DNA of 64,000 bases from Onchocerca volvulus (taxonomy: Eukaryota; Nematoda; Chromadorea; Rhabditida; Onchocercidae), in the NCBI GenBank assembly GCA_000499405.2, contig HG738140.1, forward strand, positions 3,277,631 to 3,341,630, given 5' to 3'. The notes below the pieces were generated by a model. That model was not told the DNA's origin. It saw only the letters and a list, made by a program, of their open reading frames with translations, and did no database searches. Positions 2,848-52,900 of the stretch are shown here, in pieces. Both the position numbers and the translations under genes were made by a program. The stretch's first letter is position 1. Each line of letters opens with the position of its first letter.

Positions 2848-3070
2848 ATGATGCATGCTTGGCAAAAATTTGCAATTTTTTCGAATTTTAATCAATTTCT
2901 TCTACTTATATTATTCTGTACTGTTGGTGTACATTTGAATGAAGTGGAACATCTCTTCAATTATAGTAGCAATAATAATTTAACTGATAAAGTGATTATT
3001 TTACTAAATGCAAATGAAACCAATGATAATTCAACATCAATCATCAATGATGAAACTAAAATTTCATTCG
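2848..3070 (+). CDS. SEA-LDLa gene exon 1: signal peptide
   Basis: The start MMHAWQKF is followed by the hydrophobic core FLLLILFCTVGVHL, then a short segment with sequons NYS, NLT, NET and NST. The donor GTTTGT at 3071 leaves phase 1. Joining its last G to the TA of the SEA exon restores a Val codon, which supports the link across a 2.5-kb intron. Confidence 0.7.
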
Positions 3071-6000
3071 GTTTGTTTGCTTAATCTTTTCATATTTTTA
3101 AAAATATTTTAAGATTATAATTTTGACAAAATATACATTCTCAAAATGCTTATCAATAATTTGCTGCTGTAAAAATTCATTCAATCAGATATCGGAATTG
3201 ATTGATTGATTGTCAATCATCCAGTATTCATATTATCAGTTTTAGCAATTTTAATTCTCTAAATCTTCATAATTATGAGAAAATTATTTCAATAGTTGTA
3301 ATTATTAGTTAATAGTTATCAATAATTTAAATGACTATAGAATTAAATTGATAGAGTATTTCAAAAATTTGATTATTAAATATTAAATAATTAGCATTTC
3401 AGAAATTTGGTTATTTAAAAATTTGGTTTAAAAAGCATTTTCTCATTTTTTTTTTTTTATAATATTGCATACAACATTATTGATATCTTTGAGTTAAATT
3501 TTTTAATGAATTGCAATAAATTATATTTTAAAAAAAAAAGTAATTTCAATTTATAATAACTTTCAAACTATTTGGAATTTTATTTTAGCATTTCTTCTAT
3601 CCATTATATATTAATAATTTCAAAAATCTTAATAATTTAAGTGGTTGAAAAAAAAAAACCGAAAATTATATATTTTAACAAAGTAGACTTTTTTTAATTT
3701 GCAAACAATAAGTTTCAAATATTTTTTAAATTAATTAAAATCATTTTTTCTTTTTTTTAGAAGACATTTTTTTCTAAATTCTGCGACGTAATTTTCTTGC
3801 TTATTAGCAAACCTTAGCTTTTCCGCCTTTTCCTTTTCTTTTTTTTTAAAAGAAAATAAAAATGTGAATGGAAATTATGCGATATAAAATACAAAAAAAG
3901 AAAAAAAACAAATTTCGAGGTCTAGACTGTTTGGTAATACATCATTTTGAAATGAAATACTTGTACAGGTGTTGGAAGGAAGCAAAAATGATAAGCAATT
4001 TAACATGCAAGCTTCCTTTCTTGTATCATACCAAAACTTTTGTAATTTTTTTTTTTTCTTTCCCTCCAACTTTTCTCTTTCCATTCTTCATGAAAATATC
4101 TCGACATTGTTGTTATCGGTTTCCAAATAATCTTGAGAATTTCTTTTTATTTTTATTTTTTTTTTTCTCCTTGGAATATTTTATCTCTTATGTCTTATCA
4201 TTTTTTATCCATTTCATTCTTTTTTTTTTCATCATATGCTAAACTTTTCTTCTTCTTCGTTCTTTCCCATCGTTCTTTAAAATATTGATGATCATTTTTT
4301 TATCAATTTCAAGTAATCTCAGAAATTTTTTACACCCCTTTTTTTCTTACAATTTTTATCATTTTTATATTTTTCATCAAATAATTTCACATTTTTTATC
4401 CATTCCGCTTCTTTTTAATTATTTATTTTCGATTGTAATACGAAGTTTTTTTCGTCTTCTTACCTCTCATTTTTCCATTTCTATTTAATTCCTTTGAGTA
4501 AACACAAAAATGAGTTTACGAAAAAAAAAAAAAAGAAAGAAAAAAAGGTTGAAGAAACGAATCGAAACGGTTGAAGAAAGATTTCAATAACAGTAAAGAT
4601 TTTCTTTTCTTTTTTTTTTTTTTGAATTTATAAATTTAACATGTATATAAATAATTCTGGCAATTTACCAGACGGTATTTTTTTTTCGCCAATTTTTAAT
4701 TCATCTTCTCATCATTTCCCAATTTGCGATTTTTTCCTTGAGTATGGTAAAGGGTAAAGGAAAGTATGCAAAGATTTACGAATGAATCTTGCACAAAAAG
4801 GTGGAGCATCATAAAATATATTGTCATCAATTTAGCTCTTGAAGAAGCATTAACATTTGCATTAGTACTTACGAATGTTATCGGTAGAACGATTTGATTA
4901 TTTTAACGTTTTTTTTTTCTTTTTTTTTTTTGTTCGATTATCGCTAATATTCTATCATAATCGTTATTATCATTTTACTTACTACTACTAATCTTATTAT
5001 TATTATCATTTGCAGTTGAAAATAATTGTTGCAGGATTAAGCAATAAAATTATATTGTTGTAAGATTAAGTAATAATATCATCGTTGTTGAAATTTATTT
5101 CAATTCATCCGTCTTCAATATCTTTGATTTGCTTTGTTACTTTACAAATTAATAGCAAAATCATTAAGCATTCTTCGTAGTAATAATTAGTATTATGCAA
5201 TGTATTCTAGCAAATTTAGATATAAAATTTCTGGATTTTAAATTAAAATTTTCATTCCTTTGTCAATTTATTTATTTAAAGAAGTTACAAACTCTTTGCA
5301 AGATTTTGATAGATAATTTTGCAGGGTTGTTAAAATTTCATTTAGATTAAAAATTTTCGGAAACAATTAAGATTATTTTAACATTATTTTCATATTATAA
5401 AAGAAGATAGAAATTCGTATATTTTTGTCGATAATTTTTTAGTTTTGCTAAAATTTCATACATGTCAAAAATTTAGCTTTATCGAAGGATTGATTCGCTG
5501 AATTCAAATTCATCTGATTTCAATCCTTCTAAAAACGATGATATTAGTACCATCATTATTTACTGCAACAACTTTTCTTGCTGTATATCGATTTATTATT
5601 AATTTTACTGATTTGCCATATTCTAACGAACTACGTAATCCATATACTAAGCAGTACATCCGTATCAGTCGACAAATTTCGAATGCTTTTAAGAATATTT
5701 TAGCATCATTACCTGGCCAACACAATATTTCTATTATTGGTTACAGGTTTTTTAATAATTTTATATTTTCTCATATAATAAAACTTCATTTAAAAAAAAC
5801 GTTTTAATTAAATGTTGTGCATGTCTATTATCGTTTTTCTTCCATTCGCAACAAAAAATTGGTCATTTTTTATAATACCTATTCTAATTCTAAACTTATT
5901 TTACAAGCAGTTTAGAATTTTGATACACTTATATCATCATATAGCTAGAAAAATTCAGCACTAATTACTTCTAACTCATTCCATGTAAACAAATAGGAGA

Positions 6001-49811: not shown

Positions 49812-49932
49812 ATGAGGGAGTTATGCCGACTAAGGATATTGTTATCACCGTTGGTACTAGCACAACTATTATTATTACTATTAAGTTCTATTGTTACTGC
49901 TAAAGCATGGAATGATTGGACTTATAGACGAT
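49812..49932 (+). CDS. unc-52: unc-52 exon 1: signal peptide
   Basis: MRELCRLRILL leads into VLAQLLLLLLSSIVTAKA, a classical signal peptide with likely cleavage after the Ala residues. It is followed by WNDWTYRR. The donor GTAAGT at 49933 is phase 1. Confidence 0.85.
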
Positions 49933-52900
49933 GTAAGTTTTTTGAAAAAACAAAAAAAAAAAAACTTGAAATTAAATACAAAAATTAAATACTTTAGAAA
50001 TTTGAAAATTATAGGAAATTTTTAGTAATTTAAAAATGCCATAATTTTGCTTATGAACTACAAGTATTAACTATTGCAATTATATGAAACCGAATTTAAA
50101 AAAAAAAAGTTCGAATAATAATTTATTGATTGATAAGAATTAAATATTAATTTATTAATTATTTTCAAAATTTTTCAATTAAAAATTTAATTTAACCACA
50201 TGGCAAGTAACTTAAATTACTGACAAAAAAAAAAAAGAAAGTATTAAATCTAATACAAATTGATACAAAATTTTCATATAAGAGACGAAAGATTTTGAAA
50301 AAGCTTAAATTATTGATAATTTTGAAAGTATGATTGATAATTTTAAATTTATTAGCAAAAATTTCGATAAAAATTTCATCAATCATTATCAATTTGCCTA
50401 TTGGTGTAATAATTTCACACTTTAAAAATATAAGATATTATTAAATAACAAGCATATTTGAAATTATTTTATTATTTTAAAATTCCTAAAAAATTTTATA
50501 AATTGTGAAATTTTCTTAAAATGAACATACATTTAATCTAATATTTTAAATTATATTAAAAAAAAATTCAATCAATTTACTACTATTTCAGATCAAACTG
50601 TCAATGATTATCGTCCACATTGTTAGTTTTATAGTTCATAAGTGTGTATCCTAATAATTAAATAATTATTTTCGAGAAAAAAGTTAATTTGATTAAAAAA
50701 TCCAGAAAAAAACAAAATATTAAAAAATAAACTGTATACTTCCAATAATAAATGCCAAAAACTGAACTGAATGCTAATAAGTAGTAATTTTTAAAAGAAA
50801 AAAAATTTTTTCAAAATTTAATTTTCATAAAAATTGATTTTAATTTTTATTTTAATCCCAAAAAATTGAGCAAAATTTTGGACTTTTTTTTTTTATTGTT
50901 GTTGTTGTTGCAAATAATTTCTTTGCTTAATAATTTCCATTTAAATCGATATTTCTACCTTTAATTTTAACTTTAAAACAGAAAAAAAAAGCAATGAAAT
51001 TCTTTAGCAACTACTGCATTGTCTAATCTTTTTTTTTTTAGTTAGCAAAAATTATTTGATTTTTAATCTCAAATTTTAATTTACTTTGAAATAATTTTTA
51101 ACATAATTACATAATTAGTTGCTTTAGCAATAGAAATTAACATTTATCCAACCGAGCAAAATATCTATGAAGGACATGATGCTTCATTTAATTGTCGCGC
51201 ACGTGCTGCTAACGGAATGACGTATCCGGAAGTCCGATGGACACGTTACGGTGCACCGATGTCTGCGTCAGCGCACGTAAAAGACGGACATTTAAAATTT
51301 TCATCAGCAACATCGTCTGATAGTGGACGATACGTTTGTTCAGCAAATTTTGACGGACGAAGTTATGATGCATATGCTCAACTCAATGTACAACCGTGTA
51401 AGTTTGTAATTAAATTTAAGGTTTTTAAAAATGAAATTTAATAAAAATGGACAATAATTAGGCCCTGAAATTAATGTAATTAATCAAATATTTTTAAAAA
51501 TGATGCGAAAATTTTGATCAAAACCATCGAAATATAGCAATTAGCATACGTTTCACGTACGTTTCACGCAATCATCACGTTTCACTTCTTTTCTTTAATC
51601 CCTTGAATCAATGTTACATTCGTATTTTTCTATAGTTTCGGGTTTAAAAAACAAAAAAAAAGAGCAAAAGTTGTGCAGTATTTTGAATTATATAATTACT
51701 ATAATATTTGTTAAAATTGAAAATTTTACGAAAAAATTCTTGTTTTTGTAGACCTTGTTGGAAAAACCAATTAAATGTGATTAATTAATTAATTGGTAGC
51801 CATTATTTTGAATTTAGTATAAAATTAATTCCATGTCAATTAATTAGATTTGGTTTAATTCGATTTAATTTGATTTTAATTACATATCATTGCAATCTTT
51901 AAAACATGACAGCAATCTATTTTTTATCGATTATTTGATAATAAATTTGATAAATACATCTAAGCAATAGGTATAATTTAGTAATGGACTTTTTAACCGT
52001 TTTCTTATATAATTATTTTTTTAAAAATTGATATTAAAATTAAAATTAATTTAATCTTTTATCAGCTAAATTTGATAATGGCAATGTAAAAGTTGTGCAA
52101 AAAAAATTTAATCAGTGGACTGTTAAATTCATTGATTCTTTTTATTTATTTTATTAAATTGATAAAATTTCCTATTTATTTCATTTATTTCAATTTTATT
52201 AATATCTCCCCCCAAAAAAATCAATAATTATACCGCACTATCTTATACCATTAATCATTTCAATCATATTGTAAAAAAACTTTTTGTTTTGCCTTTAGTT
52301 GAAAACTTTTTACAAGAATTTCAAACTTTTCAAGAATTCTAAACTATTGATTTAATATTTTTCTTTTTAGTACAAAAAAGAGAAAGGAAAAAATGGATTA
52401 TTGATTGTTTTATAATATTTCCCGTAAATGATAATAATGCTCCTTAGTACAGTATTATGACGTGAAATTAAATACACGAAATGAAAGTGAAATTTCATTG
52501 CCTTTACTTATTTCTATTTTATTTTATTTCAATTTAAAATTTTAAATCCTCATGGATAGAATTATATATTCGAACTTTCCCAAATAATGAAAAAAATACA
52601 TGGAATGATGTTATAAATATCTCAGTAAATTAATTTTACCTTTACTATGTATTTTTTTCAACAAATTTATTTACAATTTGATTTAATTTAAGTAATCTAG
52701 TACTAATATATAATTAGTAACATAGCAAATTTATTAAATAATATGTCTCGTTGAATTTTTGCCATATATATCAATTTTAATTATTTTAAAACAAATACAT
52801 ACAATATTTTATTGGACATATATTGATAGAACTCCGTGGGGTGAAAGGTGAAAGGTGAAAGGGTAAAAGGAAAAAATAAAACAAAAAATGGCATTTTAAA

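What the first reader, a model, noticed from the sequence alone, without database searches (positions are those of the whole stretch)
2848..51397. A SEA-domain perlecan N-terminus upstream of unc-52: long isoform or neighbouring gene?
Fifteen phase-consistent exons encode signal peptide, SEA, LDLa and Ig-like modules, the order that opens vertebrate perlecan. UNC-52 as usually described lacks SEA. The last exon (to 32836) ends at a strong phase-1 donor with no stop, and I find no other domain-bearing exon until the unc-52 exons at 50592 and 51128, which accept phase 1. If spliced together, this worm makes a perlecan of vertebrate-like layout with about 1400 extra N-terminal residues, driven from a promoter 47 kb upstream of the known start.
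Basis: partly seen in the sequence, partly recalled or inferred. Interest (0 to 1): 0.85.

Follow-up and report, generated by a model that had tools for sequence, protein, structure and literature searches.

The report
Nematode perlecan's missing SEA-domain front end
Just upstream of its perlecan gene unc-52, this worm carries the SEA-and-LDL-receptor front end that nematode perlecan is said to lack, most likely as an alternative long start of the same gene, though no transcript was available to prove the join.

Summary
The exon chain is real. All 15 phase-consistent exons were recovered; 14 of 15 have homology support (12 singly, two only in a joint alignment). The first, 2848-3070, has none and does not look coding; ATG 5538, just before the SEA exon, is the likelier start. 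SEA identity rests on sub-threshold Pfam scores, alignment to a SEA-bearing spider perlecan, and a predicted fold of a nematode orthologue that matches human MUC16 SEA. The block is single copy here and recurs in filariae, Parastrongyloides, Diploscapter, Caenorhabditis auriculariae and Heterodera. In five other filariae conservation ends near the donor and predicted tails differ. Best reading: one locus, two alternative starts, with a long SEA-perlecan made by splicing 32836 to 51128 or 50592. Against it: eight of nine nematode relatives are annotated as separate genes, a competing out-of-frame donor (32829) exists, and no transcript was seen. Reviews say C. elegans perlecan has no domain I; a nematode domain I-like module at this locus is the novelty.

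The parts
2848..3070 (+).
   Evidence: No homologue in nine nematode relatives; coding score -4.2, GC 0.26
5538..5746 (+). Likely first coding exon: Met, hydrophobic stretch, first half of SEA (or 5548-5746 if joined to 2848-3070)
   Evidence: Gene finder starts here; Met before a hydrophobic stretch also in P0001, P0002, P0280; homology
6673..6827 (+). Second half of SEA
   Evidence: (P0001 60% over 15 residues), alignment
9940..10056 (+). LDLa 1
   Evidence: Pfam
10641..10729 (+). End of LDLa 1, start of Ig-like domain
   Evidence: No single-exon hit; inside the joint alignment to P0001
11303..11525 (+). Rest of Ig-like domain
   Evidence: I-set below cut-off; joint alignment to P0001
13566..13776 (+). 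LDLa 2
15518..15600 (+). Cys-rich GSTYCWS module found in the nematode relatives
   Evidence: 70-76% identity to P0280, P0002, P0001, P0010
16385..16510 (+). LDLa 3
17525..23739 (-). Nested HHAT-like acyltransferase gene (five exons) in the host intron; not part of the perlecan product
   Evidence: MBOAT; PDB HHAT, E 3.4e-32
26998..27132 (+). LDLa 4
   Evidence: 82-89% identity in five filariae
27871..27917 (+). Small exon YFLAAQRAH
   Evidence: Matches P0008, P0009, P0011, P0013, P0014
28220..29178 (+). Asn-rich exon, ends in LDLa 5
   Evidence: 33-51% identity to five filarial proteins
29699..29943 (+). Rest of LDLa 5, LDLa 6
   Evidence: (67-80% in filariae)
30209..31410 (+). Charged Glu/Arg/Gln-rich exon
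   Evidence: 38-57% in filariae
32617..32836 (+). LDLa 7 and phase-1 donor (alternative donor 32829, phase 0)
49757..49932 (+). Candidate unc-52 first exon: possible trans-splice acceptor 49757, ATG 49812, signal peptide, phase-1 donor 49932
   Evidence: no comparable N-terminus among the fetched relatives
50592..50621 (+). Small exon, phase 1 to phase 1
   Evidence: Acceptor in top 1.1% of AG sites; no homologue
51128..51397 (+). UNC-52 first Ig exon, phase-1 acceptor
   Evidence: 36% over 99 columns to P0280
55088..63528 (+). UNC-52 LDLa, Ig and laminin-type exons inside the window (gene continues beyond)
   Evidence: 46% over 1938 columns to P0280

Best explanation
One perlecan locus with two alternative starts. 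The upstream start, most likely at ATG 5538, gives a secreted protein that begins with a SEA domain and runs through seven LDLa, an Ig-like, a Cys-rich and two low-complexity segments to the donor at 32836. That donor then joins, in phase 1, either exon 51128 directly or exon 50592, skipping the internal first exon, to make a SEA-perlecan roughly 1300-1400 residues longer. The downstream start at 49812, with its own signal peptide and perhaps a spliced leader at 49757, gives the classical short UNC-52. The long product would add to basement-membrane perlecan a ligand-binding LDLa/SEA arm, functionally a domain I/II extension. Shown: the exons, phases, homology, SEA fold of an orthologue, single copy, and a fused annotated orthologue. 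Inferred: the join in this species, the two promoters, secretion and function.
Against: No transcript evidence. Eight of nine nematode relatives are annotated as separate, unfused proteins, among them P0001 with a 60-70-residue hydrophilic tail after its last LDLa. The fused P0280 is an integrated gene model, not a sequenced cDNA that I could see, and its SEA-like region gave no Pfam SEA hit. A donor at 32829 in phase 0 scores higher on my matrix and was the one used in the gene-finder path, which reached unc-52 only through small unsupported exons, so that path is no evidence for the join. The last intron would be 18 kb. unc-52 seems to have its own signal peptide. Phase 1 agreement is expected in a third of cases by chance, more among extracellular modules.
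Confidence: 0.6

Rival explanations
1. Two neighbouring genes. An ancestral SEA-perlecan split in nematodes: the SEA-LDLa block is now an independent secreted protein ending in a small unrecognised terminal exon, and unc-52 starts at 49812 with its own signal peptide.
For: Own signal-peptide candidate for unc-52 with a possible trans-splice acceptor; eight of nine nematode relatives annotated as separate proteins; the possible phase-0 donor 32829; 17 kb between the blocks, too far for a nematode operon (recalled).
Against: Fused Heterodera protein with the same junction; no shared terminal exon in five filarial models; no coding-like terminal exon found, though a very short one cannot be excluded.
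Confidence: 0.33
2. Mixed output: mostly two separate transcripts, with rare read-through splicing that has no role; the Heterodera fusion is a gene-model merger.
For: P0280 comes from an annotation that, in the paper I take to be its source, weighs ab initio, transcript and protein evidence together (PMC11817004, passages).
Against: The junction residues in Heterodera and here are similar although the species are distant.
Confidence: 0.07

Closest known systems
C. elegans UNC-52 perlecan, classical isoforms
   Same: Downstream exons from 51128 are the unc-52 orthologue: Ig, LDLa, laminin-type and Ig modules, own signal peptide (the C. elegans layout is recalled)
   Different: Reviews state that C. 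elegans has no domain I (PMC6266596, passages) and that UNC-52 is not predicted to contain SEA (PMC4398486, passages); here a SEA/LDLa block lies directly upstream
Arthropod perlecans with SEA (P0221 Nymphon, P0234 Parasteatoda; also P0211, P0265, P0267, P0291)
   Same: SEA then LDLa repeats and Ig ahead of laminin-type and Ig regions, in one protein
   Different: Many more LDLa in P0234 (32 Pfam stretches); no hydrophobic stretch right before SEA in the aligned P0221 and P0234 pieces
Heterodera trifolii P0280
   Same: Same nematode Cys-rich module and LDLa repeats fused to UNC-52
   Different: No LDLa or Ig between the SEA-like region and the Cys-rich module; no Asn-rich segment of this kind
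Vertebrate perlecan (HSPG2) domain I/II
   Same: SEA followed by LDLa and Ig (domain layout from PMC6266596 passages and recall)
   Different: Three GAG sites precede the vertebrate SEA; none seen before the SEA here
Agrin alternative first exons
   Same: A matrix proteoglycan with alternative first exons (PMC1939731, passages)
   Different: There the choice is between a secreted and another form; here it would add a whole SEA/LDLa arm

Membership tests
Perlecan (HSPG2/UNC-52), long form with domain I | SEA domain near the N-terminus | tested here: met
   Below Pfam cut-off in own (23.8), P0001 (21.7) and P0002 (16.5) and not found in P0280; met by alignment and by the predicted fold of P0001
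Perlecan (HSPG2/UNC-52), long form with domain I | GAG-attachment Ser-Gly sites among acidic residues before SEA | tested here: inconclusive
   None before SEA in the window model; candidates in P0280, P0002 and P0234 before SEA; the 5' end here is unsettled
Perlecan (HSPG2/UNC-52), long form with domain I | LDLa repeats with Ig | tested here: met
   Seven LDLa; Ig below cut-off here, over cut-off in P0001
Perlecan (HSPG2/UNC-52), long form with domain I | Laminin-type domain III, Ig array and LamG end in the same gene | tested here: met
   UNC-52 model aligns along P0280, which has Laminin_B, Ig and Laminin_G hits; holds for the downstream block
Perlecan (HSPG2/UNC-52), long form with domain I | One continuous mRNA from SEA to LamG | not testable with these tools
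   No transcripts held
SEA domain proteins | SEA fold | tested here: met
   On orthologue P0001 only; the spliced own protein was not folded
SEA domain proteins | Autocleavage motif G-SVV (as named in PMC4398486) | tested here: not met
   Own sequence reads LGTLVTIEV at that place by my alignment; that paper says mammalian and bird perlecan SEA lacks it too

The most novel reading that the evidence does not exclude
Nematodes in general keep a perlecan domain I. The unc-52 locus has two starts, and the well-studied UNC-52 is only the short product; a conserved long SEA/LDLa isoform has gone unnoticed because an 18-kb intron and, in filariae, a nested HHAT gene split the annotations.
Probability: 0.45. 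Interest if true: 0.75.

Novelty: new variant of a known kind. Interest (0 to 1): 0.6.

Why it matters
UNC-52 is the model invertebrate perlecan, and comparisons between worm and vertebrate perlecan assume that the worm protein lacks domain I. A SEA/LDLa module at the same locus, alternative or separate, changes the inferred history: SEA would be ancestral in ecdysozoan perlecan rather than gained in some lineages. It also gives an immediate test of whether worm perlecan has a form with an N-terminal arm, and perhaps glycosaminoglycan sites (candidates in Heterodera and C. auriculariae), and whether known unc-52 alleles miss it.

Tried and rejected
Rejected or weak: (1) The gene-finder path joining both blocks runs through four small unsupported exons and donor 32829; not used as evidence. 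The run that forbade a stop gave the same path and score. (2) Poly(A) hexamers after 32836 (first two at 32923 and 33079) say nothing: AATAAA occurs 2.8 times per kb in 32837-49750 and 2.0-3.6 in three introns. (3) Signal-peptide scan: the same thresholds gave two candidates in the 18 kb (49812 with coding score +2.5, 41514 with -5.6) and three in 6.8 kb of upstream control, one of them in another gene at 867; so the scan alone is weak. (4) Own SEA by sequence against PDB: best hit 1ivz_A, E 0.024 over 37 residues, not significant at 0.001. (5) Foldseek's 50 shown rows for P0001 were mostly Ig, none named SEA; 2 of the 50 VIA rows covered the SEA region. Whole model mean pLDDT 61.8, pTM 0.29. 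(6) Acidic Ser-Gly search found none before SEA here. (7) Repeats in the 18-kb stretch gave no lead. (8) ZC101.1, a C. elegans gene that I recall as a neighbour of unc-52, is named in one held paper, in a list without context; not followed.

Limits: protein search 2 took candidates of about 1438-4574 residues and listed 120 of 368; no listed row is named as a nematode. One search took 1915-6093 residues, region 60-450, and listed 120 of 122, one nematode. A filarial fusion that starts at exon 26998 would have escaped both. One search returned 100 proteins; of its nematode rows I dropped P0074, P0075 and P0088 because their Pfam lists are those of EGF-bearing LDL-receptor types, leaving eight, and P0280 makes nine. 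The nine do not include a plain UNC-52, so the exon at 49812 could not be compared. C. elegans itself gave no row that I could name. Splice matrices were hand-started and refined on this one gene. Papers: searches found no held paper that I recognised as describing a SEA-bearing nematode perlecan; I read passages only, never a whole paper.
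Full report
Setting. The window lies on a 16-Mb contig of an unnamed 94.7-Mb genome. The closest proteins found to the upstream block are filarial (Dirofilaria immitis P0011, 54.7% over 836 columns), so I take the animal for a filarial-type nematode; that is inference.

The exons. Fifteen exons can be joined in phase between 2848 and 32836. Twelve of the fifteen have single-exon matches in nine nematode relatives. The two Ig exons have none singly but lie inside a joint alignment to P0001 (31.9% over 554 columns). 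The first exon, 2848-3070, has none, scores negative for coding and depends on a weak acceptor. The gene finder, with splice matrices trained on this gene only, starts at ATG 5538. A Met followed by a hydrophobic stretch just ahead of SEA is also present in P0001, P0002 and P0280, so I place the likelier start there. The small exon 27871-27917, which looked doubtful by splice scores, is supported by five filarial proteins.

Is it the front of perlecan? Of the 120 rows listed in the long-protein search, the best is a sea-spider perlecan with SEA, and six rows are perlecan-named arthropod proteins whose Pfam lists include SEA (P0221, P0234, P0211, P0265, P0267, P0291). LDL-receptor-related proteins are also numerous there, as expected from the LDLa repeats, so rank alone proves little; the alignments through SEA (P0221, P0234) carry the weight. 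The only nematode in that list, Heterodera trifolii P0280 (4300 aa, cluster of three), has signal peptide, acidic stretch, SEA-like region, the nematode Cys-rich module, LDLa repeats, then the UNC-52 Ig, and aligns with the UNC-52 model at 46% over 1938 columns. Its junction reads VKPIDLQINVHPPE; a direct 32836-to-51128 splice here would read SKPVTSIEINIYPTE. Its record name suggests the H. trifolii genome whose annotation combined ab initio, transcript (with Iso-Seq) and protein evidence (PMC11817004, passages); I could not see which reads support this model.

The last exon. It ends with a GTAAGT donor in phase 1 at 32836 and has a rival GTTACT donor in phase 0 at 32829 that my matrix scores higher. 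The canonical intron letters favour 32836, but only the phase-1 site can join unc-52 in frame. In five other filarial models the protein stays similar through about KP-[IV]-T and then ends in unrelated tails of a few to about twenty residues, as expected if gene finders missed the true next exon. Among 104 acceptors tested after 32836, the best phase-1 continuation is 50592; a very short terminal exon elsewhere cannot be excluded.

unc-52's own start. In the 18 kb between the blocks the best signal-peptide exon is 49812-49932 (MRELCRLRILLSPLVLAQLLLLLLSSIVTAKAWNDWTYRR, phase-1 donor), leading through 50592-50621 into 51128. A good acceptor lies 55 bases upstream, at 49757. If the upstream block were spliced to 49757 in phase 1, the first codon would be TGA (read from the sequence), so this exon fits an alternative first exon that the long form skips. 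The scan has false positives in a control stretch, and no plain UNC-52 N-terminus was at hand for comparison.

Weighing. Single copy, colinearity, strand, phase, the fused orthologue and the missing terminal exon speak for a long isoform. The own signal peptide of unc-52, eight of nine unfused annotations, the rival donor and the lack of any transcript speak for caution. I give 0.6 to two starts in one gene and 0.33 to two genes. Either way nematodes hold a domain I-like module beside perlecan, which the reviews I could see deny for C. elegans (PMC6266596 and PMC4398486, passages).

Mechanism. By its parts (SEA, LDLa, Ig, Cys-rich) the block is an extracellular arm. If joined, it would be a domain I/II extension of basement-membrane perlecan, chosen by promoter use as in agrin, whose alternative first exons are described in PMC1939731 (passages). 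Glycosaminoglycan attachment is not supported by the sequence here. Function remains inference.

Noticed in passing
17525-23739, minus strand: HHAT-like acyltransferase gene (five exons, about 450 residues) nested in the opposite direction in the 10.5-kb intron 16511-26997. The five filarial annotations of the host gene begin near exon 26998, so the nested gene may have split those models.
   Followed up: partly
31517-32187: 45-bp tandem repeat, about 15 copies, in the intron before the last upstream exon; being a multiple of three it keeps a frame open for 157 codons. Probably a minisatellite.
   Followed up: no
31016-31169: 24-bp tandem repeat, 6.4 copies at 93% match, inside the charged coding exon, so the protein length may vary between strains.
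   Followed up: no
867-2135: Small secreted-looking protein on the plus strand (MQLSHVTIYAFFTLSILCLTEA...), immediately upstream of the locus.
   Followed up: no
L001 (G000:C4:2059227-2059403): The one SEA exon over E 0.001 in the Pfam SEA search of the own genome is on another contig; that search works exon by exon and missed the split SEA of this window.
   Followed up: no
L002, about -10.8 to -8.4 kb from the window start: Repeated helicase-like open frames on both strands, perhaps remnants of a mobile element; resemblance recalled, not tested.
   Followed up: no
27871-27917, 30209 and relatives: A short C-E-Y-F-x-x-A motif follows LDLa repeats in several nematode relatives (P0001, P0008, P0009, P0011, P0013, P0014); role unknown.
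   Followed up: no
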